64,000 nucleotides of DNA from Owenia fusiformis (taxonomy: Eukaryota > Annelida > Polychaeta > Sabellida > Oweniidae), in NCBI GenBank assembly GCA_903813345.2, contig CAIIXF020000001.1, positions 2,976,001 through 3,040,000 on the forward strand, read 5' to 3'. How positions within the stretch are numbered: the stretch's first letter is position 1; every line of letters begins with the position of its first letter. The position numbers and the translations under genes were made by a program. Positions 553 through 63,053 of this stretch are shown piece by piece. The notes below the pieces were generated by a model. The model saw only the letters and a program-made list of their open reading frames with translations, ran no database searches and was not told the origin of the DNA.

Positions 553-619
553 CTACGCCCACAATAAAGCAAACGAAAATGTGTATATATAAGTGATTGT
601 GAACATGGTAAATCATCAT

Positions 620-2772
620 TCCATAGGATAACTTCTATGTAGCGAATTGACTACTGATGAAACCGCATCTCTTGTCATCTGTTGATGATCTAAATGGTTT
701 TTGAAGTGCTAATATGACGTCAATGATTAGCTCTATTTGCTTATTGATGCAGGGTGTGTCATGACCATATTTGGAATCAGATAGTATCAGGTTATATAAA
801 ATTGTTCAATATACCAATATCACTTCATTACCCTACCTATTTAATTGTTTGTTTCCGAGAAAGGTTAGAATATAGGAACCGAAGTTATTGATGATCGTAT
901 TGTTGCAAACGTACTTTATCCGTTGAATATGGGCGCATGCGCAACATTTTATCACCTACCAAGAATAGAAAACACATTCATACCCATCATTCAGATAAGG
1001 AAATGAGACAAATAATCAATATAAAATACTGGAAATTACGTTTCTTACTATACCTTGTTCTCTAATTAAATTACGATTCATACAATGTACTCAGAGGAAC
1101 ATATTACTCAATTTTAAACATAGCCCTTAATTTTACACGTCATTAAAACGTTTGAAACTAAAATAGTACGGTATGTACAGTAGTATAACACAATTGTTTG
1201 CATTTAAGCAATACTCATCTACAAAATTATAAAGTGAATGACATAAAGGGAAATTGATACATGTATTTGATAACAAATAAAATATACCAGAGCAATGCAA
1301 GAGGATTATATTTGTGCCGACACAACCCGTACAAGCTAAGGTCGGCTAGCAGGGAGTACTAGGGAGTACACAAGGTACTTTACAAATTACGCCATGACCT
1401 TACTGGTCCTCATTACTTCAGAGAATTAGAACCCTTAAGAAAATTCTTCTAGTTCATGTCATGTGTGACCCTAAATAAGCCAATGAGCCTCCATAATACA
1501 TATGGGGTATATATCATGTGACCATAAATAAGCCAATGAGCGTCCATAATACATATGGGGTATATATCATGTGACCATAAATAAGCCAATGAGCGTCCAT
1601 AATACATATGGGGTATATATCATGTGACCATAAATAAGCCAATAAGCGTCCATAATACATATGGGGTATATATCATGTGACCAAAAATAAGCCAATAAGC
1701 ATTTGTAATACTATGGGTATATTATATTTACATTATTATAATCATAATGACTGGTCGAAATATGGATTGCCAGTAAGTAAATTATTTACTGTAAATACAT
1801 ATGGGGTACCTCAAGATTCCATATAAAGTTTATTTTTTTTATAGATATTCTGCCATGGCAGCTATTTGTGCTTAGAATGGGACTTTACTCGTTATATCTT
1901 CAACGACCATAAGTCTTACTGATTTTGATAGCCATAAATTGAGGGGAGGACATTATTATGTAAGTTAGATTGTTTGGGTTGCGCGTGTTTTCATTATACT
2001 ATTTTCTTAAATGTTCCTTCTCAATGGGTTTTAGATTTAATATCTTTTGGTCTTCCGGCATTTGTGCTTTCCTGCATATATAGTAAGTCTACTTAAATTG
2101 ATTCCATGAATTTAACCAGATGTAGCATTTCTAAGTCATTCAGTACATACAATGAGTCAATGACCGAATAAACGGCAAGTGACGATAAACAGACATGACC
2201 TTAAATTGAGATGATTGTTTTTAAATCTTTAAAATTGAGCTCTTCTAAAAATTTACTAAGTCTCCGCATACATGTTGCGATGTACTTTTATATTTCAAAA
2301 CGTTTTAAAATTAAGTTATATTCTGTGGACTAAAGATATAGTATAGTTTTGTATTATACAACAATCAGATATTGATTCTGAACTAATATTCCAGTAAATA
2401 CCCTTTATGTACTACCTTTAAAGATCAATGCCATGGATATAGTAATCGAGTGCCAGGAACATTCCGAGAGGGCATTGGACATGGTGTATCGATAAGGCTA
2501 TACTTAAAGGTTATCTGTTTTATAAGAAGAACGTTTCGATGATTGATTCGATTGTACTGAAATCAGAATATCAATAGAAATAACATAAATGTACTCTCAA
2601 TAATTTGACTTTCTTGTAAATAAATGATGAAGGAATTGAAAACAGCTTTTAACTACTTAATTGATGCTCAATTCCTTTGTCATATATTTTGTAATCAAAC
2701 ATAATTTCTCCATCAGCGTAACTTTAAAGACAGATTACGCAGACATTTACTTGATTGTTCCCTTGATGTACT
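620..2772. other. Non-coding stretch between the SRCR exon and the sulfotransferase
   Basis: No open frame with recognisable family motifs on either strand. Apart from the tandem repeat at 1459-1725 it is AT-rich single-copy-looking sequence. An upstream exon of the SRCR gene could be hidden here, but none was identified. Confidence 0.5.
1459..1725. repeat. Tandem repeat, 53-bp unit, about five copies
   Basis: The unit starts catgtgaccataaataagcc, continues through 'aatgagcgtccataatacat' and ends 'atggggtatatat'. The middle copies are almost identical; the first and last are diverged. One isolated, diverged unit of the same sequence lies at about 26915-26975, so the monomer also exists outside the array. 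Confidence 0.9.
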
Positions 2773-3921
2773 TTATATATCGTTAATGTCAAAGGTAAGG
2801 AGTGATTCATTGTCTTGAATGGTTTGCTCGACCTGTTTAAAGTTTGAGATCTTTGAGCCTAGTCCTCGGGGACTTTGTTTAACAAGTTTTGGTAGATAGT
2901 TTTTAATGGGCGTTGGTAGGCCAATAAATTCAATAGCCTGTCTGACAACATTGTTCATTCCTGATACACCATTATCAAAGTCTTCATATGTTAGTATTAT
3001 CTTGCGTGGGTAGTTTTGCAATTCTTTCATACTAGATCTGTACCCATCCAATAGCTTAGTTCTGTAATCAAGAAAATCCTCCCATCTCAGAGGTACCTTC
3101 GTTATCTCGTTGGGTTTAATGCGGCTGTTGTATTGTCCTCTGGCAATGGCAGTTTGAAGTGACATAAACTGTTGAAGTAATTCACGGCGGTACATTACGA
3201 TTATATTGGGATAGCCAAGGTGTTTCACTATATCCATTAATGTTATATTATTTGCGGCTAATTGCACATTGGTGATTTTAAAACCAGGAGTTACATTTGG
3301 ATCGTCTTCTATATCTTCTTCTAGCATGTCTTTTATATAGTTCAATAAAATATGTTTCTCCGGTGGGATTTGATTATTAGAAGAAAGTCTTAGCTCATAT
3401 GGCTTTTTATTCTCATGGAGGATAGCGTCATGGCATATGATATTTGGATGGTTATTCAGTAGCTCTTTAAAGACGGATGTCCCTGACCTCGGCATAGAGA
3501 GGATGAGGAAATAACGCCTGCGTTCTCCAGGGGTGTTTGTGACGTCAGGGGAACTGTATCCACCAGGCGGATTAGGATATGCTATATCATCATCGTTGTC
3601 ATTCTCACTCTCATCTTCGTCACTGTCATCTTCATCTTCGTACTCTACAGTACTTATAAACATTGGGGATGTTTCCTGTTTATTCGGATATTTCTCCTGA
3701 TCCTTGAATTTGCCGACATCAGGAAGGACGTCAGAAAGGACGTTATTTTCTTCCATAACACGATCTAGTCCTTCAAAACTTCGTACAGCATACTCTGAGG
3801 TATCTGAGATTGGTCGAGAAGGTTCCACTAATCTTGTGCTGATGTATGCCAAGATGCCAAATATAAAAATGATGACGAAACAATGGAGAGTCTTGAACCT
3901 TGGAATTCCTGTTCTGATCAT
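2773..3921 (-). CDS. Membrane-bound sulfotransferase, single exon
   Basis: 382-residue type II membrane protein predicted to transfer sulfate from PAPS to a glycan in the Golgi lumen. Residues about 11-28 form a single hydrophobic anchor after a short basic N-terminus. A stem follows with a very acidic stretch (residues 93-112, mostly Asp/Glu). The 5'-phosphosulfate-binding loop is FLILSMPRSGTSVFKELL (about 138-155). The 3'-phosphate-binding segment is NIIVMYRRELLQQFMSLQTA (about 239-258). The YRR...L..Q..SLQ.A pattern resembles the NodH/Stf0-type sulfotransferase group more than the CHST15 or WSCD enzymes next door; the acceptor glycan cannot be told. The frame is open throughout with no intron, which could reflect an old retrocopy. 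It is transcribed divergently from the CHST15-like gene; the two start codons are about 0.6 kb apart. Confidence 0.85.
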   Translation of the reverse strand: MIRTGIPRFKTLHCFVIIFIFGILAYISTRLVEPSRPISDTSEYAVRSFEGLDRVMEENNVLSDVLPDVGKFKDQEKYPNKQETSPMFISTVEYEDEDDSDEDESENDNDDDIAYPNPPGGYSSPDVTNTPGERRRYFLILSMPRSGTSVFKELLNNHPNIICHDAILHENKKPYELRLSSNNQIPPEKHILLNYIKDMLEEDIEDDPNVTPGFKITNVQLAANNITLMDIVKHLGYPNIIVMYRRELLQQFMSLQTAIARGQYNSRIKPNEITKVPLRWEDFLDYRTKLLDGYRSSMKELQNYPRKIILTYEDFDNGVSGMNNVVRQAIEFIGLPTPIKNYLPKLVKQSPRGLGSKISNFKQVEQTIQDNESLLTFDINDI

Positions 3922-4535
3922 TTTAACGCTTGTAATAGTTCCACCATGTGATTCGGAAATAGGTTAGATGTAATTGATATATTTGTATAGATAATACACG
4001 TTATTGTTGTTTTAATTACATGTCAACACCAATCTAGGCTTATTGTTTCAAAATTATTTGCGCATAAGTTCTGGCATGTTGTTTTTTAATGAAATATGGG
4101 ACTGAACATAAAACAAATGAATTGGTATGCAATTTGTATGGAGTTCATTTACTTTCATCAGTTTAACGATCAAGTCTTGCCAGGAAACTACCAAATTACC
4201 AATTCAGTGAAAAAATAATTTATTGTTATTATAAAAGTAATCTATCTTGCCCATTGAAAGGGTCTGTTTTTCTTAGGTAGTATAAACAGAAAATTTCCAA
4301 ACCAAATGCTTTCTCAATATAAAGTATATCTCCCTATTTCTAATTGCAATTTGAGGGAGCTGTTGACCATTTGTACTTTCACTTATGAAACTCGGACGAT
4401 CAACATGAGTAATGGATGGTTTATGACAGCATTGTATTAACCAGCATAGAACGTACATGCGTATGTCAAAACACTTGGGGTTATAAAACTACCTTCATTC
4501 ATACAGATTATCTCTCCTGAGTGCAAGCTACTGAA
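3922..4535. promoter_or_regulatory. Intergenic region between two divergent sulfotransferase genes
   Basis: About 0.6 kb separates the start codons of two head-to-head genes, so both promoters should lie here. No clear TATA box, operator or conserved element was recognised. The assignment is positional only. Confidence 0.35.
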
Positions 4536-14291: not shown

Positions 14292-14694
14292 ACATCTGAT
14301 AAAACAATGAAATTACATTACCAGTTTGTTCACATCCGATTTAGTTACATTTTGATGTTATATTGATGTCATCTTCAACTGTAGCTTCTAAATGAGCTTT
14401 ATCGCCCGCTTTATCGTAGATGTTAACATTATTTGATAAATTAATACTTTTGATATTCTCATTTTCAATCGAAATTATTCTTTAAATCGATATACAGTAG
14501 CTCATTAGTTAGATAGGTTCAGTCAACGCCCCTTTTAACAATTATTGGTTTAATTAATTATTGAAGATTTGGACAATTGTTCTAGGAAAATAGGTTGAAC
14601 AGATGTGACATAAATTCCAATAACTATTTACGGACTTGTGAGTAGCATTCGAAAATGCATTTTTATATGTCTAGTCAAAAACAATTTGTGCATT
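14292..14694. other. Intergenic region before the GT92 gene
   Basis: About 0.4 kb, AT-rich, with no recognisable feature. It must hold the WSCD-like 3' end and the GT92 promoter. Confidence 0.35.
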
Positions 14695-16158
14695 ATGTCT
14701 CGTAAAATAAAACAACTTGTTGCGATTGGAGCTGTTATCTGGTGGCCATTTGTATTCGTATTATATTATGCGTCTTTTAGTATCGTGCATGAAGAAAGTA
14801 CACCCAAGGACATTGCTCGTACATGTGGCCCAACAGTAATACCTAATGTGAGAACTGAAACCTTCGAGGAACTTGTTAAAGACACGTTCTTTGCCTTTTC
14901 GGCATTTCGGGACATGCGCATTGTTGACGATAGCAGGAATATGAAACAGTTGATTGACGCGCATGCGCAGTTCGCCGACTCAGAAGGTCAAGTCGGAGTT
15001 GTACGACTTATTGGAGTAGCTTCACGGGATATACCTGATTTGTATTGCAGACTTTCCGATAAAAGCGGAAATGGATATAGCGTTCCTGCAAGACATCACG
15101 CTATGAGCAGAGTGTTAGTTGAGACGATGTATAGAGAATGTACCTATTTTCCATATTTCGTTGACTGTCCACTTTATGAATCACACAAAGACCACGTGGT
15201 AGATGTAGTTGGCATAACTGATAAGATGTGTGGAGAGGTCGACACGTGGTTACCCGTCACTCAAACGTTCTTTGACAATATGCCCGACACTTCCCATAGT
15301 GTCATCATTTGTATGAAAACTCTTTTTGGACTGATAAATCCATCGCGATTAATTGAGTTTCTAGAATTCAGTAAAATATTAGGCGTCGAGAAAGTAGTTA
15401 TCTATGGAGTTTATGATATTGGGCTCGATGTCCGTGATGTATTAGATGGATACATAAAAGAAGGGTTCATCACAATCATAGACTGGAGACTTCCATTCGA
15501 CCCCAATCTTACACACTTCTTTGGTGAAAAAGCAGCTATTAATGATTGTTTATACAGGTACGGCCCACAGTACAAGTATATGTTATTTTCCGATTTTGAC
15601 GAGTATTTCATTCCAAGATCCCACAATACTTTGTATGAACTATTTGAATCGATCGAAGACACCTTTCAAAATCCGTACCATCCAATTGGTGCATTTAGGT
15701 TCCTTCAGACTCGATTTTGCATTGATTCCCCAGAGCCTTCCAACGATAACACTCACCTTGTCACAATGAGCAACACAATGCGTGATGATCCTAGCATCAT
15801 AGCTGCAAAATGTGTCGTAATCCCTAAAAACGTTGTTGAGATGGACGTCCACACACCAAGACAACAAGTGTCCATCAACCACAAACGTCAGATTGTCCCC
15901 GTAGACATGGCACAGATGCATCACTATAGATACCGTGATAAGGAGGAGGAGTACTGCAAGACTGATGATAAAGGTGTGATGCGATTTAACAAAGCACTAA
16001 AGCAGAAGTACAAAGAAGCATCTGATAGGTTCAAGGCCCATACATGGCCCGATAAATTATTTGCTAAGGCATTTCGACCTGTATGTAAACAGCCTGTTGA
16101 GAATATGACGGGCTCTACTGACGATTACTTTTCACGTCTGAATGGGGCAAAAAATTAA
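14695..16158 (+). CDS. Glycosyltransferase family 92 (GT92/DUF23) protein, single exon
   Basis: 487 residues from the ATG at 14695. The frame is open further upstream but lacks an earlier ATG. Residues about 7-29 are a hydrophobic anchor (type II). The C-terminal half is a GT92 domain: SVIICMKTLFGL (about 201-212), LIEFLEFSKILGVEKVVIY (220-238), a W-R-LPF motif (264-268), GEKAAINDCLYRYG (277-290) and the DFDEYF metal/nucleotide-sugar motif (300-305), then MHHYRYRDKEEEYC. Characterised GT92 enzymes (nematode GALT-1) add beta-1,4-galactose to fucose on N-glycan cores. The donor and acceptor here are inferred only at that level. It is co-oriented with two sulfotransferase genes and could build a glycan that they sulfate. 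No intron, which is unusual beside multi-exon neighbours. Confidence 0.9.
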   Translation: MSRKIKQLVAIGAVIWWPFVFVLYYASFSIVHEESTPKDIARTCGPTVIPNVRTETFEELVKDTFFAFSAFRDMRIVDDSRNMKQLIDAHAQFADSEGQVGVVRLIGVASRDIPDLYCRLSDKSGNGYSVPARHHAMSRVLVETMYRECTYFPYFVDCPLYESHKDHVVDVVGITDKMCGEVDTWLPVTQTFFDNMPDTSHSVIICMKTLFGLINPSRLIEFLEFSKILGVEKVVIYGVYDIGLDVRDVLDGYIKEGFITIIDWRLPFDPNLTHFFGEKAAINDCLYRYGPQYKYMLFSDFDEYFIPRSHNTLYELFESIEDTFQNPYHPIGAFRFLQTRFCIDSPEPSNDNTHLVTMSNTMRDDPSIIAAKCVVIPKNVVEMDVHTPRQQVSINHKRQIVPVDMAQMHHYRYRDKEEEYCKTDDKGVMRFNKALKQKYKEASDRFKAHTWPDKLFAKAFRPVCKQPVENMTGSTDDYFSRLNGAKN

Positions 16159-28786: not shown

Positions 28787-31700
28787 ATGACTTCTTTGCC
28801 GACTGTCGTATCTCCATTGCAAGCAAGTGGAATTGGCCGCGAGTTACTCTTGGACGAGTACATGCTGGGGAGAAGACGACAGGTTAGAACCGTTTATATT
28901 TCTTGCTCAGATTTAATTTTATAAACCCCACTCAGGTAGAAACGCAATAGAATGAAAGTTGTATTTTATTTTTAAGAATGTCCAGCTATAACAAAGAGGA
29001 GCGCATTATTTTTCTATTGTTTTTTAAGAATGTATACTTGGCAAGCTATCCAAAACCAGTCTGGCACAAAAGATGATTGACTGTCATGTGCAGTGCACTA
29101 AGCTGAACTAATTATACCCTATTCACTCTTTCAATAGTTGAATAGTAAACACAAAAGGGATCAAACTTTAAACTGTTAACCCTGTTACATACAGTGCACT
29201 GAATCTGAACCATTAGACCCACTTCTCAATACGCTTACCTCATAGTCAATACAAAAGAAATAGATTTTTCATGATCATGGACCATTTACCTTTAATAAGA
29301 CTCAGTGCCCACTGTGTGGTTTAAGTTAGATAAACCATTCGTTTTGGGTCTTAGGAGTAAATAATGGCCTTGCGCCCCCCTCTGGCCATTATTTTACGTA
29401 ATACCCAAGACCCATCGTTTATACATAACATAAACTATCAGCAATCACAGGGCAATACTTTCAGAATTTACCACTATGTGCAAGAACAATTATATTGCCA
29501 ATCTATATCATAATCCATGGCTAGATAGCATCCTCATGTTTCATTTGGTATGCAAATTATGATTTTGTATCAAAAATTAAAAAGGTTATAGCATTTTGAA
29601 GAAAGTGGCGTTTTTTGGCCCACCCTGTATATATTTGATCCAAAAACAAAGCCGGAAGGATTCCGGAATCTCAAGATTTTTAGCCATCTAGTTTGAAAAT
29701 ACGTACAGTTTAGACGGTACGCTTTAGTCTGACTTCATTATTTGTCTATTTCTCTGATCAATCCTTTTATTTCAGAGACGAAATAGAACAACATTCACTC
29801 CGCATCAACTCGCATCCCTCGAGGAACTATTTTCTAGGACGCATTACCCTGATATATTCGTCCGCGAGGAACTTGCAAATGAAGTTAACTTAACAGAGGC
29901 AAGGGTTCAGGTACCAGTAATTTTAGTCTTACTACAATTCATTGGCGGTTGATAACTAATTGCATAGTGAATTGTAATATGTGAACAAACGTATCGAGTT
30001 CAGGATTTATATTTGATTAATATAAGTGTCTGTTTCGCTAAAACAAATTAAGTTACTTATTAAGTGATCATGTTTAGAAATCTAATAACATTTCTTTTAT
30101 TACAATTTGTAACAGCCATATGTATGCATATACAGGGTAGGCCAAACAAATGTTCCTGAAATGGGACAAATACTCTTTGGGGTTTCTAGATAGACTGGTT
30201 CAACATCAAGCCAGCAGCTTCAATGAAATAGTATTAACCTGAGTCTAAAAACAGTTTTTTTTATATGTGGGCTCACTCAAACACCCGACTGATCATCTAA
30301 TTAAATCACATTTACGATCTCAGAATCTTTCTCTGTACGGGCACATTTTCCCAAATCGCCTTTTTCTTGAATCAGTTTTTGTCCATCGTACTCTTCGTCT
30401 CACATGCTTTTAAAATTTCGTTTGGTCTGAAAATAATTTCAGAATATACTGAATAACCCATCCTATTTGTTTCTTTAACGGACTGAATAATATATCTGGT
30501 ACTGGTATTTTATATGTTGTATTGAAAATTATACTGACAGCTGTATAATTTGACCCATAGTGTCTGTCAACCTTTCTTATTCAGAAACCGCAAAAGACTC
30601 ATTTATACCATTTCAGGAACAATTGTAAAAGTAATTTTACATCCCCTGTAAATCATGTTACATTCAAATAAAAAATGTAGACGTTTTGGGGCCACCCCGT
30701 ACGACTGAAAGTGCCGGTGCGTTTGTTCTCGACAATCTTAGTAGATTAAAATATTGAGCACTCCCCGCGAGTTTATCATACCAGAAGAGTTGAAAATGCA
30801 GGCAGAATCTTTTTGCTGAACACATGTGCTAGCATCATATGCTATGAAAATCTGAGCGTTGTCGAACAAATAACACATGGGACGCCAGGATCATGTATAT
30901 TTATAATACCTCATCTTCACAGAAGAAGTGAGTAGCTCCCACAATTCTTTCATAGTCTATCGTATTCGGGGATTCCCCATTACGTCATCTCCCGCATCAT
31001 CTCCAATCAAATTGCAGGATGTGATCACGTGAACAATCATGAACACGTGCTTTTGAAATCATTGGAATGGCGTTAACATCAGTTCAACATCATCATTTCA
31101 AACCGACGGTAATACTATTGAAGTTACTCGATCCATACTTGTAGAAAATACTCATAAAACTACAGCGAACATTTGGAGATCCATTTCAATGGTAAATGGA
31201 ACCTGTTAATAAAATTTGTTATCGAACGTGCCAATACGAAAGGTCATTTTTGGGAAATCCCCCCCCTCTGTCTTCTACACTAACTAACATCTACACTATC
31301 AACCGGTTCGTTTACGTCACAATTATAGTGAGAAGTTTTTTTGACCATTTTGGTTCGTTTTAGTTACCGAAATGGACCCTTTTCCATAACGAAGTGGAGG
31401 TGGGATAATTCAGGGAGGGACTTAAAGAAAACAGAAGTTTCCTTTACAGAATAAAGACACAGATGTATTCATTTAGCATGTCATGTTATTTTATACCAAC
31501 TTATGTATTAATGGGTATCACTCTTGGAGGTTGATCCAATTTATTCATTATTTCCAATTTCAAATAAATCTAATTTTAAAGGTATGGTTCCAAAATAGAC
31601 GGGCAAAATGGCGTAAGGATGTCCGCCTGAGGTATAACCGTGACACATGGAGGTCTCGCCCCTTATCACTATCTCCAGTCTCAAATCCATGGGCATCAAC

Positions 31701-32414
31701 AGCCGCGCCCTCTATAGCTAGCAGCCAAGGCTTGGGTACAACAGCCTCTGCTGAGATGATGTATACAGAAACAATGAGAGTGGCCCAGTCTTGCTTCAGA
31801 GAAAGGTGCGCATTGTGACCGTTCATCAGTATTCATTTGTAATCCAAAGAACGTTTTTTAACTCTTTTTAAAACTTAAAACATATAAAACAAACAACTTA
31901 TCAAAATATATTGCATTAAAATTATTTCTTCAACTTAACATTCAATTCACAATTTTAAGTAGAATGCGCCAACACTACACTGGCAACCAGTAGCTTGGGT
32001 TATTTGGATATAAAACCGCATACGATTATACTACAAATGGAAGTCTCTAAAACAGGATTTTTCAATGTTATTGATATTCATTTCAGTTTTTCAGCAGCGG
32101 CTGCATTTCACCACCGTGCTACCCATCCTTGTCTGCCTCTGTGTACCTGTGCAATCGGCTTAGCAGCGAGGCCTGGTGTAGCATGCACCAGCCATTGTGC
32201 TGCACACTCGACACCCAGTGTACCAACCGCGGCAGATTTCCCGGCAAAGCCAGGCACTAAAAGACCACCATTGAGCATGCACCCATGGGTACCCTTACTT
32301 GGTCCCCGGAATAACGACAAAGTTAATTCATATGACGACGATGATGTTACGGAAGATGAAAGCCCAAATCTAACATCATCGGCGGCAACCAGAGACACTC
32401 CGAGTCCCAAATAG
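28787..32414 (+). CDS. PRD-class homeobox transcription factor (Prrx/Drgx-like), four exons
   Basis: Exons 28787-28882, 29776-29910, 31582-31805 and 32087-32414 (TAG) join with phases 0, 0 and 2, giving 260 residues. The homeodomain starts at the last residue of exon 1 (QRRNRTTFT...), continues through THYPD and LTEARVQ, and ends in [12 protein letters not shown]. It has Gln at position 50, with the intron between residues 46 and 47 that is typical of PRD-class genes. Closest by eye to DRGX and PRRX ([26 protein letters not shown]); ALX is a little further. No paired domain and no recognisable C-terminal OAR motif. The tail has a [12 protein letters not shown] cysteine patch that faintly recalls DRGX and ends in an acidic DDDDVTEDE stretch. 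AATAAA at 32570-32575 is a likely polyadenylation signal. Nuclear DNA-binding regulator by family. Confidence 0.87.
29330..29422. repeat. Hairpin in homeobox intron 1
   Basis: The outer stem is ataaaccattcgttttgggt with acccatcgtttat. The inner stem is aataatggcc/ggccattatt around a C-rich loop. MITE-like. Confidence 0.65.
30133..30699. mobile_element. Degenerate mariner-like non-autonomous element in homeobox intron 2
   Basis: The left end TA/cagggtaggccaaacaaa and the right end ttttggggccaccccg/TA are diverged inverted repeats of the CAGGGTGGCCC type. No transposase was found. A lone right end of the same type is at about 29615-29630 (tttggcccaccctgta). Confidence 0.55.
30925..31268. repeat. 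Dispersed repeat, inverted copy of 23106-23490
   Basis: Reverse complement of the copy upstream of the gene; lies in intron 2, just before exon 3. Begins gtgagtagctcccacaattc and ends in a run of c's before 'ctctg'. Confidence 0.8.
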
Positions 32415-50287: not shown

Positions 50288-53200
50288 ATGATATTGTTAA
50301 TGTTAGCCGCACTGCCGTTAGTTAACAGTCAAGGTACGTACTATTGCAAATGTTTTGTTTCATTTTATTTATAAATTGCATATAATTGACTTAAAACTAA
50401 TCAAGTATCATCTAAAATGTTAAATCATAAAATTACAAAACGTGAGTCTATTCATTTTCACCATATAAATTGCATGCTCTATAATCGATATGGCATTTGA
50501 TGCCATTAATATTACGTGAACTGTTATTTCATCCTTTACATGCATCAGAATGGAACTATGGAAGTTTAGGTAAGTAATTATTGATATAATAAACATAATT
50601 TAGATATAAGTAACCGATATCAAAGATAATGATCAGTATTTTAATGTAAATGTCAAAATCACTTGTACATGAAATTGAAATTGTGCGATGGAACAAAATA
50701 TATTGATTCGGAGGGTTGTAAATTAACAAATGAATATGTATCTCCATGGATACCTTAAGAGAATGACTCGCATAATATTGGGTTGTTTCATCACTTTTCC
50801 TTATGACTTAAGCATTTGATGTCTAACAATATATCTAAGGGATTCTAGAGAGATATGCATACTTGGTATATCCCTTGAAATAAACTGAAGATTTTGCACA
50901 CTTTACGTTGTGAAACTTGCTGGTCAAAAGAAACGCCCCGATTCCAAGTTTTGTTAACGTTTAAGTTTATGTTCCTAGCACATTTCCAGCACTGTTTAAT
51001 AAACAGTGCTGTTTGGTGATTGGCAGTGTGCCCTCTTTAAGTAAAGTTTTATTTTAAACTATTTGGAAGTAGCCTCCATGTCATAGATTCGGCTCCCTTA
51101 TTGAATGTTGCAGTGGAATTTGAAGGTCAGAGTCTCAATGATAATATATATTATCAGGAATAATTCATCTTGCCCGTTGGCCATTTTGACTTTTAAACAT
51201 TCCTTTGTACTGACACCATACATTAGCCAGTAAATGCCATGGCCTCCCACGTCTGTTATAGACAAGGTATGGACGTGACCTGAGGCCTTGGCATACGTTA
51301 TAAAATGTTTAATAATCTCCCAGTTTACTAATGTTGGTAATGCCTAGTGTATATGTAAATATACTATCTTGGCTACTTACTCATGCAAATGACAAGATAG
51401 TTGTAAAACACAAGAAACTTTATTTTACTGTATACCCGGGCCTCAGGACGTGACCTCCCTACTTTCAAATGGCGTTTTGAGGTTTGTGCATCATTCTTTC
51501 GGCCCAGTCAACTTGTAGAATATAAAGCCTACCTGACCTAGATAACTTAGCTGTCATAGCATATTCAACAGGTCAATAAAGTCCCAGGCTCAATTCTTGT
51601 TTGAGAAGTAAAAGTATTTTATGGATTTACCCTTTAATTGTGCCTTTTTTGATAAATTGGCCAAAAAAGGCCTTAAAGCCCAAAAGGCCCACTTTGAGGC
51701 CTTACAAAAAATGTTTGGCCCAAAAACTATGGGCCCCAAAAACTATGCCCCCCCCTCCGGATCCGCCACTGATCCTTGGTTGATTGAAGGTGTTGTTTGT
51801 GCATATAAGTATTTGTATGTATCGGGTATATAAAGTTGGAACTAACATTATAAATGGTAATAGAGATATGCATACAATCACCGTGAAACAGATACATTGA
51901 AACACTATCCATCATTCTGTTTTCAGATAGTTTATGCTAATATTTTTTATAGAAATGCAATTATTTGAAGTGATACAAATGATGTGACATGAATCATCAT
52001 TATGAAATTTATGTTTTCTTAATAGGTCTACGCACAAATGAACATGCTTACAATTAAAATGTCTATGTTATACATAACATTAACCAGAAGACCCAGAAAG
52101 AGCTACATCTTACCGCCTACTATTAATTACAGGGCCGTCTACATGGGGGGATGGTTTCTCTCAATGTGGGGAGCCGAACCAGTCACCTGTGGACATTGAC
52201 ACAGACAAGTTAGAAACGGATTCGAGTTTAAATGCATTCGGATTTCATAACTTTGATAAAAAAGCTAACAATGAGCTCGAAAATACAGGACATACTGGTG
52301 AGTATTTTTCAATTATTTCTAATGTCAAGAGTTTCGGAAATATTTTATGTTTTTCAACATGTTTCGTCATGACTAGAGTATGACCGATATACAGGGTCTT
52401 AACAATGTACCCAAAAGTATACCAACAGCACAGATAATCCAATCAACATGTTTGTGATGTAGCTGAAGCATGCACTGAACGATGAGAATGATGATGTTTA
52501 AATCGATCATTCAATCAAATTACAATATATTGAGTTAAATTTCAAATAATCCCTCAAAGAGTCTCGATGCTTCTTTTGATAATTTGCCCTTACTTTGGGA
52601 AGATTGCAAGTGTGAGGTTGTCCGGGCATTTGATATATTTGTCTGTGAAGATGATAATTTAAAGATATCATTAATCTTCGGCAATGGTGGCACTTTATTA
52701 GACTCCAGATGAAATCTGGAGTCTATTGTTTTTGCCTCTTTTCTTATTAGACTCCAGATGAAATCTGGAGTCTATTGTTTTTGCCTCTTTTCTTTTTCTT
52801 ATTCTTCTTATTCTTCTTATACTGATCGAGTTTTCTCAACAACTATAAGACATCTTTTCAAGACTATTATATGGTCAATATAGGTATAGTATCTAGTTGG
52901 TGGGAAATGGGGTCAAATTTTTATCTAGGTCAAAGGTCAAGAACTAGGTCAAATCCAGTACTTTGTCACTTTTTTCGATTTTCTCGGTCGTCCTTCAATA
53001 TTTTCGATCCGGGTTTTTTTCATTGTGTTCCTTATAAAAAAGTAGGAAACCTAGGGTCGATTTAGTTTTTTGATATCTCAAACCGATTTTGAGATATCAG
53101 TGTCCGAAAACCAGGTCCAAAAAAAGGTTCTCCGAATCAAATGTGCAGGATATTAGTCTTATAGGAAATTTTCTCAGGATTCCGAATCTGAAAACGAAAT

Positions 53201-56200
53201 TTAGATCTGACTTCCGGTTTGGAAGTTATGGCGTTTTGAAAACTCAAAAATCGCTAAATTTGGTGCCCATGTTAAGTCAATGGGAAAAAATATTTTTTTG
53301 AAGTGAAAAATACGGAATATAGACTGAGTTCAGCTTCATATAATCCAAGCCTTTAAAAGAAGGGGACCTCAAAAGCCATCTAGCTTCACAATTTGGACAC
53401 CGAAATGCCTAGGTCAAAATCTAGGTCAAATTCATAGGTTTTCCTTATTTTTTCGATTCTGACACTACACTTTAATTATATTCTTCGAAATTGTGTATAC
53501 ATGTAGCCAAGAATATGCTAATAGTGTTAGCCTTTTGCCGTCAGAAAGTATTTTGACCCACTTTTGAGATATGGTGTCCGAAAAGTAGGTCAAAATAAAA
53601 AGTTCTCCAAATTGAATATATGAGTTATGAATTAAGGGTAGAATTCTGTCAGGAATCCGAATCTGCAAACCAAATTTCGATCCAACTTCCGGTTCGGAAG
53701 TTATGGCGTGTCCGAAAAGTAGGTCAAAATAAAAAATCTCCAAATTTAACGTATGAGTTATGAATTAGGGCTAGAATTTTGTCAGGAATCCGAATCTGCA
53801 AACCAAATTTCGATCTGACTTCCGGTTCGGAAGTGATAGCGTTTTGAAATTTCGAGAAAAATCGATCTGATGGTATCCTGATAGAAAGTCAAGAGTAGAG
53901 AAGAAAATATTGAAAAATTCATCCATCCTTCCTATCTCATCCTACCCTATCCTTCCTATCTATCCTTCCTTCATATCAATTCCTTCCTATCCTTCCTATC
54001 CTATCCTATCCTTTCTTCCTATTCTATTCTATCCTATCCTTCTTTCTTATTCTATCCTATCGTTCTTTCCTATTCTATCCTATCCTACCTTCCTATTTTA
54101 TTTATCCATCTCTTTCTAGATGACTCAGCTTATTCTGGATGACTCGGCTAAAAAAAGTCTAGATCTGGAGTCTGAAATTGAACTTCGTTCAATTTCCAAA
54201 ATCTAGTTCTTCTTATTCTTCTTATTCTTATTATACTGATCGAGTTTTCTCAACAACTATAAGACATCTTTTCAAGACTATTATATGGTCAATATAGGTA
54301 TAGTATCTAGTTGGTGGGAAATGGGGTCAAATTTTTATCTAGGTCAAAGGTCAAGAACTAGGTCAAATCCAGTACTTTGTTATTTTTTTCAATTTTCTCG
54401 GTCGTCTTTCGATATTTTCGCTCGTTTTTTTTAGTCATGTTCCTTTAAAACAAAGCTAATTCCGAAAGGCAAATCGTTTTTTGATAACTCTAACCGTTTT
54501 TGAGATATGGCGTCCGAAAAGTAGGTCACAACAAAAAGTTCTCCAAATTCAACATATGAGTTATGGAATAGGTGTAGAATTTTCCTAGGTATCCGAATCT
54601 GCAAACCAAATTTTGATCCGACTTCCGGTTCGGAAGTTATGTCGTTTTAAAAGCTCAAAAATCGCTAAATTTGGTGTCCATGTTAAGTCAATGGGAAAAA
54701 TGATTTTTTTGAAGTGATAAATACGAAATATAGACTGAGTTCAGCTTAATTTAATGAAAGCCTTCAAAAGAAGGGGACCTCAAAAGCCATCTAGCTTCAG
54801 AATTTGGACACCAAAATGCCTAGGTCAAAATCTAGGTCAAATTCAAAGGTTTTCCTTATTTTTGCGATTCTGACACTACACTTCAATTATATTCTTCGAA
54901 ATTGTGTATACATGTAGCCAAGAGTGTGCTAATAGTGTTAGCCTTTTGCCGTCAGAAAGTATTTTGACTCACTTTTGAGATATGGTGTCCAAAAAGTAGG
55001 TCAAAATATTAAGTTCTCCAAATTTAACGTATGAGTTATGAATAAAGGGTAGAATTTTGTCAGGAATCCGAATCTGCAAACCAAATTTCGATCCAACTTC
55101 CGGTTTGGAAGTTATGACATTTTGAAAGCTCAAAAATCGCTAAATTTGGTGCCCCATGTTATGGCAATGGGAAATAAGGTTTTTTTGAAGTGTAAATTAC
55201 GAGATTTAGACTAAGTACAGCTTAAAATAATGAAAGCCTATGAAAGAAGGGGACCTTGAAGGCTACTTAACTTCAAAATTTGGACACCAAAATCCCTAGG
55301 TCAAAATCTAGGTCAAATTCATAGTTTATTCTTATTTTTGCGATTCTGACACTACACTTTAATTATATTCTTCGATATTGTGTATATATGTAGCCAAGAG
55401 TGGGCTAATAGTGTTAGCCTTTTGCCGTCAGAAAGAATTTTGACCCACTTTTGAGATATGGTGTCCGAAAAGTAGGTCAAAATAAAAAGTTCTCCAAATT
55501 TAACGTTTGAGTTATGAATTAAGAATAGAATTTTCTCAGAAATCCGAATCTGCAAACCAAATTTCGATCCGACTTCCGGTTCCGAAGTTATGGCGTGTCC
55601 AAAAAGTAGGTCAAAATAAAAATTCGCCAAATTTAATGTATGAGTTATGAATTAGGGGTAGAATTTTGTCAGGAATCCGAATCTTTACATCAAATTTCGA
55701 TCCGACTTTCGGTTCGGAAGTTATGGCGTTTTGAAATTTCGGAAAATCGATCTGATGGTATCCTGATAGAAAGTCAAGAGTAGAGAAGAAAATATTGAAA
55801 AATTCATCCATCCTTCCTATCTGTTCCTATCCTATCCTATCCTTCCTTCGTATCCTTTCCTTCCTATCCTTCCTATCCTCTCCTATCATATCCTTTCCTC
55901 CTATTCTGTTCTATCCTATCCTTCTTTCTTATTCTATCCTATCGTTCATTCCCATTCTATCCTATCCTACCTTCCTGTTTTATCCATCCATCTTATTCTG
56001 GATGACTCGGCTTATTTTAGATGACTGGGCTTAAAAAAGTCTGGATCTGGAGTCTGAAATTGAACTTCGTTCAATTTCCCAAGTCTAGTTATATTTAGAG
56101 TTCGAACTTGAAAGAGAAAAATCTTTTCTGTAACTTAAACAGAAGATCAAGATGTGTCTCATTGGCCCACTCCTACTATCCTGTCCCACTCCTGTCCTAG

Positions 56201-59200
56201 ATCATTTATATAAAGATGAAGAGAAAGGGACCTAATGTAGGTCCTTTGGGGACACCACATCGTCACATTCCCTTTGAGTATTCTTTGACAAAAGTAGTTT
56301 ATTTCCTGTTACTGATATAGCCTTTGAACTCATCAAGGGATTTTTCCTGGAATCTACGAAGATCCAGTATATGTCGAAGAATATAATGATCAACCTATCA
56401 TACACTTTCCTTACATCCAAAACTCTTAAAATGATGTTTTTCTCCATTGTTATCCTACGATTATCTTGGGAAGTCAAAAATGTCTAACAAGTACATTCAT
56501 TCTTTCCAAATTTATTCATACGAATAATTTTGAACTTTTCAATTAACTAGCAGTGCAATTCTGTTATTTATAATATATTGTCAAAAGTGATCATGGTCTG
56601 CAATCACTAAAGCACCATTAATTCGTTTTATTTATTTCAATTCATCTCGAAAGATAAGAGGTGAGAGCGATAGATTGATTGAGTAAAGTAGCTAGATCAG
56701 AAGTAAATTTACCACTCCAATTCATAATTGTTTAATTAATTAGTGAAATATCACCCTACCTCTGAATCTTTTAAATTATCAATCATTTTTTGAACTTTTC
56801 GACTGTTACTCGTCTTAAAGATACACTTTAATTGAAAGAATGTGATGTTTTTTTCAAGATGGCAGGATAAAGGACAAAGGAACATAAGAACATAAACTGT
56901 TCCAAACCGTTCGGCAAATCGATATTAGAATCCCCATTAAGAAAAATATCTCACTTTCCTTTTAAACTAAAGGCTTAATTTGTCATTAAAATATCAGTAT
57001 TAACATAAAAAAATTTGCAACCAACTGTAATCAGGAAATGCCTGTTACATTCATATTGATTTCAATAGTAATAACTTGCACATCATAATCAAATCATATC
57101 TCGTTTCATACCCAATATTAGTTACTATAAATGCCACCACATCCGCCTGTTCTAACAGTTTTACAGCAGATAAATTCTGAATTGAATCTTTGTATTTGTT
57201 TTCAGATTCATTGCTCTCATTAAGCCGAATTTCAAAGACAACAGATATGCAAATGTTCTTTAGTTTGTGTTAGAAACCATAGTATGTAGTTAACGATAAT
57301 TATAATACATTCCCCATCCCTGTATTTCAATGAGAAATGATGCGAGTAGAAATAATCTTTATTTACGTCATTAGATATTCAAAATCCACTCAAAGTGATG
57401 CCATATTTGAAATCTATATGTTAAAGTACATCTAGAAATATGGTTTAAAAATTGTTTGTCAACTTAATTCTTTTTGAAAATATGACTTCTAGTTTGGAGA
57501 GATTCTCCATAGACCCCAGTTACAAAATCACAAAAAATAAAATATCTTTTCTTGTATTGAACATTTCCTTTTACTGAAGATATTTTTAATTTGCACAACT
57601 ATTAGATACATAACAGGTGATATGAAAACTGAACCACTAAAAGAGATGTAATTTAAGTTCAAGGGAGCTTACTATATCCGCCTTGATATCTGGCCCGAAC
57701 CTGGTGGTGAAACTGGTAACTACCTCCTCGCATTTCAGCAATTATGGTGCTTGGAATTCGTAAACGAGTGTACGTCTACAATGGCGGACTGGAGGGAAGC
57801 TATGTCGTAGTAGGGTTTCACTTTAGGTGGGGATCCGAGCATACGGTTGACGGCAATCGGTCTCCACTCGAGGTACATAGATACTAGTTTGCTATACTCT
57901 AGTTTAAAAGTTTCATACTTGACATTGGACATTACGGACTCATACAATATAGATAGAAGAAAAATTAAGATCTAACCTCCCCGGCTAACCTCGTTTTTTA
58001 CCTTTATATTTACCTTTAATCACCCAATTTTTTTCTTTTACTACTGATTGTTCCGTCCTGTTTTGAACTATAGCAGTCATAAATGCAATTTCAGTATTGT
58101 AGCTAAGCACGACACCTTTACTAAGACGACTTTTTCCTTTCATTTCAGTTGCAAATTGTATGTTTTAACAGGAAATTTCCAACAATGAACGACGCCATTG
58201 AAGCTTCGAATACTGAACCAGACAGTGTTATCAACTTAGCCGTGCTTTTTGAGGTATATTATTTTAGCAAATCATTAGCATCCAGATCCAAGTCGTACAA
58301 ATATTTTTATATTTTGCACACAAAAATAAGAAATAATGAATGTATTTCCAGATATCCTCTTCTGATAACAAAAACTTGGACCCACTCGTGACTGCACTCG
58401 AACAGGTACAGACTGCAGGTAGGGTCGACACATGGGGTTCGACAGTACACACAGTCAGTTATATGGATCGTTTGCTACTTTTGATAATAAATGTGAACGG
58501 TTGCAGAAATGAAAACCAAAGAAACTTGAAATAAAACTTGAATGGTGATACGATATTTCTAGATACAAGTGTTTTATATGCCAATATTCATATCATAAAG
58601 TATTTGATGATGCATATCAATTATTTATCACCATAGGTTCAAAGGTGAAGGTCAGAGGTCGTCTCCGATTTAAAGATCTACTGCCATTCTCTGCAGCGAC
58701 AAATTATTACAGATACCAGGGAAGGTTTTCCAACCCACCATGTTTTTATACCTTGTGGACGGTTTTCTCGGACACTGTTTTGATCTCGGAGACACAGGTA
58801 AGATGCAATCAGTCATAACATGCGTTACATTATATTTCACTTCATTACATTACACCCTACTGCTTTCGGTGAAACTTGTGATATATACCAGAGACAACGT
58901 ATAGAGGATTGTTCCATCAATTCTTTAATGCTAGATGAAGTTGACTCTCTTATGGTATACAAATAAACCATAATTCTTTTTTTTCAATACATCATATTAC
59001 ATATGAATTTATCCACACTTTTAATGGATCGTGACCACTTCAAATTGCTAAATTGCAATTCTTTGCAGCTCGAAGCGTTCAAAAGGCTAAAAGACAAAGA
59101 TGGGAATCCATTGAAGGATACATTCAGACCGACCCAACAACTTGGAAATCGTGTTATCAAGTCAAGCATGCCACCACTAAGACAGTTCGACCCTGGTGTT

Positions 59201-62200
59201 CCCAATAAATGTATATCTTATATAGCGGTCAAGTAGTCGATTGAGACTAGATATACTTTTTTGTAAAACTTATATATCCTGAAATGATTGGACATACATG
59301 TTTTCATTTTATTGTGGATGATCCAATGTAGCCTTGCCCAAGTCTATGTCTTTTTTATTTTTCATTTTTATTTAAATTATATTGAAGATCAAGATACGTA
59401 AAAGAAAGTATCGTCTTGGGCAAGGCTAGATCCAATACTAAACAACCGATTCATCATCTGAATAAAAATGTTTTGAAAATTATTTACAAATTCCAATACT
59501 TTAAAGGATATTTTAACAATATACCAAGAAAATATAGGAAAAACATACAGATACGTTTTTTCTTCAATGTTACTATTTTTGTGTTATATAAATGAAGCCT
59601 GTGTGGATGTGTTTCTGGTCATTGACGAGAGCTGCTCTGTGTACGATGACATGCACAAAGTGAAGGAGTTCCTCTTGGATCTGGTGGATAGAATTATTAT
59701 CGGGACTGATGCCGTGTTAATGTCGCTTGTAAGGTATGGTCTTCATCTAACACATAAATGCCTCATCTGTTATATTCAATGTCACTCATCGACTCATTCC
59801 CCAAACAGTGATTTGATAACTACTTTCATCATCAGGAAATAAACAGAATACGTATATGCCACTCATTTGTCATAAATCTATAACTTTACACATGTACATC
59901 GACGGTTGCCGTTCTCACTTTTTACAGATATAGTGCCCCAGTCACTATGAACTTTTACCACAGCAATACAACCAACAATGATGTTGTCATGCGACTCATC
60001 GACACACAACCTTTAGGACAGCGGACCACTTGTAGGACGCATACCTCAGAAGCACTCAAGTTCAATTTGAATAGGTTTAAGATGGTTTTTAATGATATAT
60101 AGATTCACATAACATCATGCCATCTTTATTTGAAAAAAAACTAATTTTGCATTAAATGTTAATTTTAATTGTTGATAATTTATAACGTAATTATTCGTAT
60201 AACTACCTGTAATTCAAATGATTGTGTCCTTCCTATATATATTTCTCATTTAACATTTATTTCGATTTTGAGGTACTTTAATTATGATTTATGATTATTA
60301 CTGTTGTTTGTAGGTTCTTTGGCCTACATGGAGGCCAGAGGAACGAAACGACACAGCGTGATTATGGAATCAGAACAGTTGCTCCTGACGTCATGATAAT
60401 AATAACAGACGGAATCTCCATCCCTATGAGAGCCCGAACATGTAAGGTTTTAATTTATCATCAGTTACTGAAATATCCAAATTAACACATTTGATGAGCT
60501 AAGATTATTATCCAATGATAATTTCCATATCTGACCTGACCATAATTATATTGAATAATTTATTATTGTATGAATCTCTATTTTTGTTTCTCCAATAGCC
60601 GCGCTTGCAGAAGCCGCCAAACTGAGAGGACATGGAGTCGAGATTTACACCATCGGCTTGAAAAATCAAAACGCACGCAATGGATATGAGGAGCTGCATG
60701 GATTTACTGGGGGCAAAGATGACCACGTGTTTGATATCAACAATGATGGTTTAGCAGGTCATTTCGCGCATATCATCAACTCTTACGACACGTGTACAGG
60801 CGAAAAAAGTATGATCAGATATCAATTTGTGGTACGAATCAGTATTGAACGTTCAAGTAATAGTATATTCAGATTAAAGCATTAATATCAAGATTCTTTT
60901 ACAAACTTTTACAAACTTTTCATGACATTTCTGATAAATGACCAAGATGAGTACTAACTATTATTTAATTTTTCAATTAATTTATGTAACATAGATACAC
61001 AAATATAATATAGACAGGAAATCACTTGTCTACATCTAGATTGTTCTGACCAACTTGACATTGTGTTGGTAATAGACACGTCACAGAGTTTACTGACATC
61101 TTCTGAGTGGGATCGGATCACAAAGAATCCAGACAATCACCATGAGATCAACTCTGAACATCTGATTGCAGTAAAGGAATTCTTTAAACAGTTATTAGCT
61201 GCAATTCCCATTGGTTTGTGGCTTACTGAATCTTGTATTTTGAACTAAAGACATGTATTATATGTTTCAAATATGAATTATGCGATGTAATCAATTTAAT
61301 AACAATTCATGAAAGATACGCATGTAGAGCCCCAAGCAACATAGAAAAAACATAGACACCTATCGAGTGTATTTAATAAAATAAGTAAAGTACTGAAATA
61401 GTTTGGTCAAAACAATTCGACAAGAGTTGGACTACTTGGGTAGCATCTAACGCATTTTGTTTAATACAGGGATCGATAAAGTTAGAGTAGCCATCGTTTC
61501 ATTTGATGAGGTTGTGAGAATCCACCAATACCTTGATGACACAACGGACTATGCAGGAACAAATGATATATTGACCAATAGTGTCATAGATTATACGGGT
61601 GTAGGGACACGTACAGATGCAGCACTTCGATATGTTCTCAACAGGTGAGGGGTCGAACGACCACCAATTGTCACTTTTTGTAATTAAACAATAAAGGACG
61701 ATTCTCGGTTTGGAGAACGAAGTTCATGAATCTAAATGAGCACTATCCCTGCTTCGGACAAATTTGATTTTTTTTACATAATATAGATTTGAATGTCTTC
61801 TTTTGAATAGTCATAATTTAATTTGGGTAATATTTCTAGATTTTTCGCAAAAAAATATTAGCGCAGTACACTGATGAACTTTTTTCCCCAAATCGAGACT
61901 TGTATTTTATTGAATCGGTCTAATTGAGCGTTACCCCTGCTTCAGACCAATTTGTTATTTTTACATCTTGTAGATTTAAATGTCTTCTTTTGAATATTCA
62001 TAGTTTAATTTGGGTAATATTTCTATATTTTTCATGAAAAAAGTTATTAGCCCAGGAGACTGTTCTCCAAACCGAGAATCGTCCTTTAGTGTTGAAAAAA
62101 GAATAAATTGGTCAAGAAATTAACTCATAAGCGCAGAATAGTGGTTCAGAGAAAACAGCATTTTAACATTTTAGTTCTCGTCGGTTCCAGTGGTATATTA

Positions 62201-63053
62201 ATATTTAAAACATGATATAAAATCATTTCGACCTTGATAGGACAACAATATTTTAACGTTTTTTGAAAGTTGAGGATATTTAGAAAATATTTGTTGGAGA
62301 AAAATTGGCCACCTGAGTGAGATCATAGCGTATACTCACGACATCACAAATTTGTAGAAATGCTTTACAAGTCTGTATATGCAAAAAATCATAGATTGAT
62401 TGGTTGAAATAATTTACAGGGTGGTCCAAAAAAGGGAACCCCTGCAACAGGCTACATTTTTGTGAATGAATACATGAATTGGCTCATATTATCACGTATA
62501 ATTTCTGCAAATTTCAAGACTAAGAAAAATGTATGGTACCAACATAAATTTTAGACCTTTCTCTACAACATGTGAAAATAAAAAAGAATTCCTGCAAGTA
62601 ATAAGGGAAATATGGCCAGTTGCAGGGGTTCACTTTTTTGGACCACCCTGTAAATGCCTGATCTATTCAGAGGAGTAGAGAAAGTATTGTGTTTTACAGG
62701 ATTAAACTGTTGTATTTGATGACCTATTTCCGCACTAGCGGCACATTCAAACATTTGAAAATTATAACATAAAGAACTTTTAAAGTCACATTTTAAAAAA
62801 ATGTCTCAAATAGTTTTCAATTATGAAAAGTAATAATTCAACTCTATTTTACTTTACGGGACGGGACTCATTTGCTTCAAGGGTGTTGAAAAAGGATCGT
62901 GGAGACCGAGTTGATGTCAACAACTTCATAATGCTGGCAACTGACGGTGTGGCCTACCCATGCTGTACAGCTAGTTGTTGTCATATGAGCACAGGCACTA
63001 TACAATGCCCCACCACTGACTACCCATGCATAACTCAAGAAGATGCGACAAGG
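50288..63053 (+). CDS. Secreted pseudo-carbonic-anhydrase with tandem vWA domains, 15 exons, 3' partial
   Basis: Exons: 50288-50333, 50549-50569, 52133-52297, 57739-57872, 58149-58253, 58352-58418, 58637-58797, 59069-59210, 59598-59733, 59928-60074, 60314-60441, 60599-60808, 61040-61213, 61470-61644, 62882-63053. All are GT-AG with matching phases and give 661 residues, with a donor (gtagtt) leading out of the window. Order: signal peptide (1-14, MILLMLAALPLVNS), alpha-carbonic-anhydrase domain (about 16-275), vWA 1 (about 282-480), vWA 2 (about 489 onward, incomplete). The carbonic-anhydrase domain lacks two zinc ligands and should not be catalytic; both vWA domains keep MIDAS residues and should bind a divalent cation and a ligand. 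Inferred role: extracellular matrix or adhesion protein. The join of exon 8 to exon 9 is the weak point: phases fit (T + CC = Ser), but the acceptor (aaatgaag) is poor and reading through exon 8 reaches a stop at 59234-59236. Each half is certain; the fusion is probable. Confidence 0.7.
53925..54116. repeat. Microsatellite (TCCTA)n-like, first copy
   Basis: Pyrimidine-rich run of tcctatcc/ttcctatc words inside repeat unit 1. Confidence 0.9.
55805..56000. repeat. Microsatellite (TCCTA)n-like, second copy
   Basis: Same run inside repeat unit 2, with several changed words, so it has diverged since the duplication. Confidence 0.9.
57375..57640. repeat. Dispersed repeat, copy B (partner at 26136-26440)
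   Basis: In intron 3, about 100 bases before exon 4. Same order of shared words as copy A. Confidence 0.65.
59328..59428. mobile_element. hAT-type MITE, 101 bp, with 8-bp target duplication
   Basis: The ends tagccttgcccaag/cttgggcaaggcta are perfect complements. GATCCAAT flanks both sides (59320-59327 and 59429-59436). The 8-bp duplication is the hAT hallmark. It lies in the intron between the carbonic-anhydrase and vWA halves. Confidence 0.9.
61694..62086. mobile_element. Inverted-repeat element, 393 bp, in intron 14
   Basis: The ends are aaggacgattctcggtttgg and its complement, with TA on both sides. The interior has two tandem copies of a block of about 150-200 bases (…ccctgcttc.gac.aatttg … tttaatttgggtaatatttct…). 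Confidence 0.85.
62417..62650. mobile_element. Mariner-type MITE, 234 bp, in intron 14
   Basis: The ends are CAGGGTGGTCCAAAAAAGGG and an almost exact complement, continuing into aacccctgcaac/gttgcaggggtt. TA flanks both sides. Confidence 0.9.

What the first reader, a model, noticed from the sequence alone, without database searches (positions are those of the whole stretch)
50288..63053. Carbonic anhydrase fused to tandem vWA domains in one secreted protein
Eight carbonic-anhydrase exons and seven vWA exons lie in the same orientation. Every phase fits across the junction: exon 8 ends with one base, exon 9 supplies two, giving NK-S-CVDVFLVID. Known carbonic-anhydrase fusions include receptor phosphatases PTPRG/PTPRZ and molluscan nacreins; I know of no characterised protein joining it to a tandem vWA array. 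The combination suggests an extracellular matrix protein, and both modules are known separately from biomineral matrices. Inference beyond domain identity is mine.
Basis: partly seen in the sequence, partly recalled or inferred. Interest (0 to 1): 0.85.

Follow-up and report, generated by a model that had tools for sequence, protein, structure and literature searches.

The report
Dead carbonic anhydrase fused to adhesion domains
An animal genome carries a small family of genes for a secreted protein that joins a carbonic-anhydrase-like domain, which has lost its zinc-binding site, to one or two adhesion-type (von Willebrand A) domains; it probably works as an extracellular binding protein, not as an enzyme.

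Summary
The fusion is very probably real. The model is signal peptide, alpha-CA domain, vWA1, vWA2, about 750 residues. The main evidence is comparative: CA exons followed by this kind of vWA exon occur at 7 places on 3 large contigs, one a tandem copy directly downstream. The CA/vWA junction is phase 1 in 7 of 7, also when phases were left free (6 of 6 non-reference copies). Copies 1 and 2 show purifying selection on both halves (dN/dS 0.20). Both vWA metal (MIDAS) motifs are intact in the window copy. Best reading: a secreted adhesive or matrix protein with a pseudo-enzyme CA module. A biomineral role is untested; weak hints point to an annelid. No transcript was available, and the window copy's junction has weak splice sites. 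My limited open-access searches found no report of this architecture.

The parts
50288..50333 (+). exon 1: start codon and signal-peptide-like MILLMLAALPLVNSQ
   Evidence: MILLILAVLPLVNSQ in the tandem copy
50549..50569 (+). exon 2: (E)WNYGSL, start of CA domain
52133..52297 (+). exon 3: CA domain
   Evidence: PF00194 match
57739..57872 (+). exon 4: CA domain, zinc-ligand strand FHFRWG (H94 kept, H96 to R), loop before SEHT shortened
58149..58253 (+). exon 5: CA domain, third zinc ligand H119 to Q (LQIV)
58352..58418 (+). exon 6: CA domain
58637..58797 (+). exon 7: CA domain
   Evidence: PF00194 match
59069..59210 (+). exon 8: end of CA domain and linker; phase-1 donor T|GTATAT; unspliced reading ends CISYIAVK*
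59211..59597 (+). intron 8 (387 bases), the CA/vWA junction
59598..59733 (+). exon 9: vWA1 start, MIDAS DxSxS (DESCS); 136 bases in 7 of 7 family loci
59928..60074 (+). exon 10: vWA1; 147 bases in 7 of 7 family loci
60314..60441 (+). exon 11: vWA1, MIDAS aspartate (IITDG)
60599..60808 (+). exon 12: end of vWA1
61040..61213 (+). exon 13: vWA2 start, MIDAS DTSQS
61470..61644 (+). exon 14: vWA2 (GTRTD)
62882..63053 (+). exon 15: vWA2 (LATDG), cysteine-rich insert; exons 16-17 follow outside the window at L001:2-122 and L001:325-453

Best explanation
A member of a multigene family encoding a secreted protein of about 750 residues: signal peptide, acatalytic alpha-carbonic-anhydrase-like domain, short linker, vWA1, vWA2. 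Shown by sequence: the exon anatomy, its recurrence at 7 loci, conservation of the junction phase, purifying selection on both halves (copies 1 and 2), loss of the zinc site, intact MIDAS motifs in the window copy. Inferred: the CA fold serves as a pseudo-enzyme ligand-binding surface and the two vWA domains bind partners in a divalent-metal-dependent way, so the protein works as an extracellular adhesive or bridging component (matrix, tube, cuticle, mucus or body fluid), not as a CO2 hydratase. I put the fusion itself at about 0.93 and the adhesive/pseudo-enzyme mechanism at about 0.6.
For: Continuous phases and AG/GT borders over 17 exons. The tandem copy directly downstream has the same 17 exons, 74% identity over 742 aligned codons, dN/dS 0.195 overall by my own counting script (signal+CA 0.258, vWA1 0.163, vWA2 0.159). 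Exon 8 donor and exon 9 acceptor are phase 1 in 7 of 7 loci: read by eye in unconstrained translations, and best in a scan with phases free in 6 of 6 non-reference copies; over every exon placed, 66 of 67 chose the phases of copy 1. Exon 9 is 136 and exon 10 is 147 bases in 7 of 7. All 7 scored genome matches that start at exon 9 residue 1 with at least 49% identity lie 3' of a CA, same strand. Unspliced tails after exon 8 run 2 to 55 residues and, by eye, share only the first codon; only 3 of 7 loci have an in-frame Met upstream of exon 9. Trees of CA and vWA1 give the same three groups (copy 1, copy 2), (P1, P2), (P3, P4, P5); the vWA2 tree, without P2, agrees as far as it goes. Zinc ligands 94/96/119: copy 1 H/R/Q, copy 2 H/R/H, P1 N/N/T, P2 F/F/M, P3 I/N/Q, P5 K/N/Q, P4 unread; 13 of 15 other CA exons keep HxH. 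Nearest solved relatives of vWA1 are collagen VI alpha 3, von Willebrand factor and integrin I domains; for vWA2 collagen VI alpha 3, the others only weakly.
Against: No transcript, protein or orthologue from another species was available. In the window copy intron 8 has the second-weakest donor of 17 (the 17th being the unproven one after exon 17) and the weakest acceptor of 16 by my simple consensus score; an in-frame Met lies upstream of exon 9 (MLLFLCYINEA); an unspliced reading gives 8 residues and a stop. The first exon finder imposed the phases of copy 1; the phase-free rerun searched only around those picks, and one exon (P1 exon 13) preferred another phase. A donor-like GTAAG after exon 17 recurs but no further exon was found, so the C terminus is uncertain. 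P2 shows no vWA2 in the 30 kb fetched. Several exons of P2-P5 were not resolved, and exons 1-2 of P1-P5 were not found, so their signal peptides are unknown. Order within the C4 trio differs between trees. Whether other CA genes have other kinds of vWA nearby was not tested: the PF00092 search scored only 150 of 685 candidates. The adhesive function rests on family analogy.
Confidence: 0.65

Rival explanations
1. Two adjacent genes: a secreted CA-like protein ending CISYIAVK*, and a separate vWA protein starting at the in-frame Met near 59567.
For: Both readings are open in the window copy; intron 8 splice sites are weak there.
Against: The phase-1 junction is kept in 7 of 7 loci on three large contigs, the unspliced tail is not conserved, 4 of 7 loci have no in-frame Met upstream of exon 9, intron 8 is only 133 bases in P1, and no exon-9-type match at 49% identity or more was seen away from a CA (92 of 245 candidates scored).
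Confidence: 0.04
2. One locus, two products: weak splicing of intron 8 in the window copy makes both a secreted CA-only form and the full CA-vWA-vWA form.
For: Weakest acceptor of 16 and second-weakest donor of 17 in this gene; short open tail to a stop.
Against: The tail is not conserved even in the tandem copy; exon 8 donors of copy 2 and P1-P5 score higher (5.4 to 10.2 against 1.4).
Confidence: 0.15
3. A biomineralisation matrix protein in which an active CA supplies bicarbonate and vWA anchors it.
For: CA and vWA are both reported from biomineral matrices (listing); in pearl oyster the Pif vWA domain pulls down the CA nacrein (PMC11291548, section 18 read).
Against: Zinc ligands lost in 6 of 6 readable copies; no Gly-Xaa-Asn repeat visible in the sequence; no chitin-binding domain; the genome hints at an annelid (weak).
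Confidence: 0.1
4. A humoral or immune recognition protein (plasma or mucus) with vWA-mediated binding, expanded by duplication as immune families often are.
For: Several divergent copies, likely secreted, tandem duplication.
Against: No site-specific positive-selection test was run; overall dN/dS of copies 1 and 2 is low.
Confidence: 0.2

Closest known systems
CA-related proteins (CARP VIII, X, XI) and the CA-like domains of PTPRG and PTPRZ
   Same: Alpha-CA fold; PTPRG and PTPRZ are among the best solved-structure matches (E 2e-29 to 7e-29; the best is CA IV, 2.3e-31). That CARPs and these domains lack zinc histidines and bind protein partners is recalled.
   Different: PTPRG/PTPRZ continue with fibronectin III, a membrane segment and phosphatase domains (recalled); here two vWA domains and no further conserved exon found. 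Orthology to any CARP was not tested.
Nacrein (molluscan shell CA)
   Same: Secreted multidomain alpha-CA.
   Different: Nacrein is described as an active CA with a Gly-Xaa-Asn repeat between CA subdomains (PMC11291548, section 18 read); here the CA is uninterrupted and lacks the zinc site, and the partner is vWA.
Pif / BMSP shell matrix proteins
   Same: Secreted vWA-containing matrix proteins; the Pif vWA binds nacrein in pull-down (PMC11291548, section 18 read), a separate-protein parallel to this fusion.
   Different: They carry chitin-binding domains; a CA domain is not among those described in the section read.
Collagen VI alpha chains, von Willebrand factor, integrin I domains
   Same: vWA domains; nearest solved relatives of the vWA parts.
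   Different: No CA domain (recalled); no collagen repeat here.
Carb::Aldo fusion of Colepidae ciliates
   Same: A lineage-specific fusion of PF00194 to an unrelated domain (PMC13344042, passages read).
   Different: Partner is aldo-keto reductase, CA is active, organism is a ciliate.

Membership tests
Alpha-CA fold (PF00194) | Profile match above the curated cut-off over the whole domain | tested here: met
   209.7 bits against cut-off 27, residues 23-266, profile 2-253 of 254
Catalytic alpha-carbonic anhydrase | Three zinc histidines (94, 96, 119 of CA II numbering, recalled) | tested here: not met
   Window copy H/R/Q; 0 of 6 readable family copies have all three
CA-related (acatalytic) proteins | CA fold with at least one zinc histidine replaced | tested here: met
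   As above; activity itself not tested; 13 of 15 other CA exons of the genome keep HxH
CA-related proteins VIII/X/XI | Orthology to one of these clades | not tested
   No tree with named CARPs was made
vWA domain with MIDAS | DxSxS, threonine, aspartate motif (recalled) | tested here: met
   Window copy vWA1 DESCS / T / TDG and vWA2 DTSQS / GTRTD / TDG; in exons 9-10, D9, S11, S13, T82 and T84 invariant in 7 of 7
Nacrein | Active CA interrupted by a Gly-Xaa-Asn repeat | tested here: not met
   CA domain uninterrupted and zinc site lost
Pif/BMSP | vWA plus chitin-binding domain | tested here: not met
   Only PF00194, PF00092 and PF13519 found at E 0.001
PTPRG/PTPRZ | CA-like domain followed by fibronectin III, membrane segment and phosphatase (recalled) | tested here: not met
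   vWA1 and vWA2 follow the CA; no conserved coding exon found after exon 17 between copies 1 and 2
Secreted protein | N-terminal signal peptide, no membrane anchor | tested here: inconclusive
   Hydrophobic N terminus MILLMLAALPLVNSQ, kept in the tandem copy; no predictor run; not found in P1-P5; C terminus not fully certain

The most novel reading that the evidence does not exclude
A lineage-specific expanded family of secreted pseudo-carbonic-anhydrase/vWA adhesins that fuses in one chain two partners that in nacre are separate interacting proteins (a CA and a vWA protein), with the CA turned into a binding module, and with the window copy using a weak intron 8 to release either the CA part alone or the full adhesive protein.
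Probability: 0.2. Interest if true: 0.75.

Novelty: new variant of a known kind. Interest (0 to 1): 0.55.

Why it matters
Few fusions of alpha-CA domains to other domains are well known (PTPRG/PTPRZ and nacrein by recall; Carb::Aldo, PMC13344042). A family in which the CA has lost its zinc site but is held under selection next to metal-binding vWA domains is a test case for what the CA fold does without catalysis, an open question for CARPs (recalled). It also gives a fused counterpart of the Pif-nacrein interaction reported in pearl oyster (PMC11291548).

Tried and rejected
Two-gene model: tested by junction phase, unspliced tail and upstream Met across 7 loci and rejected. Active-enzyme reading: rejected on zinc ligands, with 15 other CA exons as control; 2 of those 15 also lack HxH, and two of the 15 (L035, L044) are near-identical copies. 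A third vWA or membrane exon after exon 17: copy 1 downstream (64454-70230) compared with the fetched downstream stretches of copy 2 and P1-P5; nothing convincing. Second vWA in P2: not found in the 30 kb fetched. Papers on a CA-vWA fusion: none recognised in the listings (14 papers; 0; 2; 0; 4; 1). Of these I opened three: PMC11291548 (passages, and section 18 read), PMC13344042 (passages) and PMC7191736 (passages; leech saliva, CA and a four-vWA protein described separately); the others I saw only as listings. Dropped before counts: a spurious P4 exon 7, and a first P5 exon 15 that was replaced. P4 exons 4, 5 and 7 remain unread.
Full report
Names used. Copy 1 is the window gene, copy 2 the tandem gene downstream; P1 lies at contig C1:14.79M, P2 at C3:27.36M, P3, P4 and P5 at C4:10.80M, 10.75M and 10.63M.

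What was checked. The window is G000:C1:2976001-3040000 of a 498-Mb genome with 12 large contigs of 32-62 Mb, the 13th being 0.66 Mb. The spliced 744-residue model has a hydrophobic N terminus, one Carb_anhydrase domain (E 7.1e-62) and two vWA stretches.

Where the gene ends. After exon 17, copies 1, 2, P1, P3 and P5 meet a stop within a dozen codons; a GTAAG donor-like word also sits there. P4 and P2 were not read at this point. No conserved coding exon follows in a comparison of copy 1 downstream (up to the start of copy 2) with the fetched downstream stretches of copy 2 and P1-P5. I take vWA2 as the last domain, with the last few residues uncertain.

The family. tblastn of the model against the continuation of the contig found a second gene immediately downstream (continuing coordinates 70236-91180) with the same 17 exons. 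Genome searches found five more places where CA exons are followed on the same strand by related vWA exons. Among scored matches that start at the first residue of exon 9 with 49% identity or more, 7 of 7 lie 3' of a CA (in which 92 of 245 candidates were scored). P2 has vWA1 but no vWA2 in the 30 kb fetched.

The junction test. In 7 of 7 loci the exon 8 donor and the exon 9 acceptor are phase 1. I first read this by eye in three-frame translations. The exon finder had the phases of copy 1 built in, so I reran it with phases free around those picks: exon 8 and exon 9 kept the phases in 6 of 6 non-reference copies, and over every exon placed 66 of 67 did, the exception being P1 exon 13. Exon 9 is 136 and exon 10 is 147 bases in 7 of 7. 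The joint reads K or E, then S (A in copy 2), then the first vWA cysteine. Intron 8 runs from 133 to 6747 bases. Unspliced, exon 8 would add tails of 2 to 55 residues that by eye share only the first codon; only 3 of 7 loci have an in-frame Met upstream of exon 9. This is what a conserved intron predicts, not a conserved gene end. Against it, the window copy's donor is second weakest of 17 and its acceptor weakest of 16 on a simple consensus score.

Selection and history. Copies 1 and 2 are 74% identical over 742 aligned codons with dN/dS 0.195 by a counting script of mine: 0.258 for signal plus CA, 0.163 for vWA1, 0.159 for vWA2; the 22-codon linker stretch gives 0.58. Unrooted trees of the CA and vWA1 parts recover the same three groups; the vWA2 tree lacks P2 and agrees on the rest. 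P4's CA is represented by exons 3 and 8 only, and P3 and P5 also miss some exons. Order within the C4 trio differs between trees, with IQ-TREE support of 69 to 88. One fusion followed by duplication and dispersal is the simplest history (inference).

The CA is a pseudo-enzyme. Aligned to CA II and CA IV, the window copy has His94 but Arg at 96 and Gln at 119 (numbering recalled). The other readable copies, aligned by eye, are copy 2 H/R/H, P1 N/N/T, P2 F/F/M, P3 I/N/Q, P5 K/N/Q (exon 5 of P1 is the least certain placement). So 0 of 6 have all three ligands and 0 of 6 have HxH; P4 is unread. As control I fetched the 15 other CA matches that span this exon: 13 of 15 keep HxH. 'Other' means that no exon-9-type vWA was matched near them; their flanks were not read. 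The 6 linked copies also lack most of the loop between the tryptophan position and the EH/SH motif, seen by eye, which supports a common origin.

The vWA domains look competent. DxSxS, threonine and TDG motifs are present in both vWA of the window copy; in exons 9-10 the DxSxS and threonine positions are invariant in 7 of 7. Nearest solved relatives are collagen VI alpha 3, then von Willebrand factor and integrin I domains (weak for vWA2).

How it most likely works (inference). A secreted bridging or adhesive protein: vWA domains bind partners through their metal sites, and the CA fold offers a second binding surface, as thought for CARPs and PTPRG/PTPRZ (recalled). A parallel exists in nacre, where the Pif vWA domain pulls down the CA nacrein (PMC11291548, section 18 read). 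A mineral role is possible but nothing here shows it. Three Eryth_link_C matches over cut-off hint at an annelid; contig number and size would fit Owenia fusiformis by recall, unverified.

Novelty. I recognised no report of an alpha-CA to vWA fusion in the open-access library searched (listings, plus passages or one section of three papers). Domain-architecture databases could not be queried, so predicted relatives may well exist there. I class it as a new variant of a known kind: a CA-related fusion protein with a new partner.

Noticed in passing
window 52600-56150: Intron 3 holds a repeat block: a 226-base unit pair 1414 bases apart at 95%, 300-base units at 87-94%, and CTATCC-type tracts; by eye the word CTCCAGATGAAATCTGGAGTCTA stands at its left end. 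Looks like a nested non-autonomous repeat.
   Followed up: partly
window 57739-57872 and family copies: The 6 readable vWA-linked CA copies lack most of the loop between the FHFRW-type strand and the EH/SH motif that the other CA exons have; a possible shared derived deletion (by eye).
   Followed up: partly
L005:8347-8601, L007:7419-7673: P1 and P2 carry a threonine-rich mucin-like stretch after vWA1 that the window copy lacks; P4 has one before vWA2.
   Followed up: no
window 62882-63053: vWA2 carries a cysteine-rich insert (YPCCTASCC...CPTTDYPC) right after the MIDAS TDG, seen in 6 of 6 copies with a vWA2.
   Followed up: no
window 92-634 (-): Scavenger receptor cysteine-rich domain frame, PF00530 E 1.8e-25.
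   Followed up: partly
window 14614-16158 (+): Single 514-codon open frame with glycosyltransferase family 92 match, PF01697 E 5.7e-35; a sulfotransferase-like frame at 2773-3963 (-) matches below cut-off.
   Followed up: partly
window 31477-31818 (+): Frame holding the end of a homeodomain ([13 protein letters not shown]), Pfam match just below cut-off.
   Followed up: partly
G000:C2:215362-215740 and G000:C3:26073306-26073720: Two other CA exons also lack the full HxH pair (ITIHFG and FRFHWG), so further CA-related proteins probably exist in this genome.
   Followed up: no
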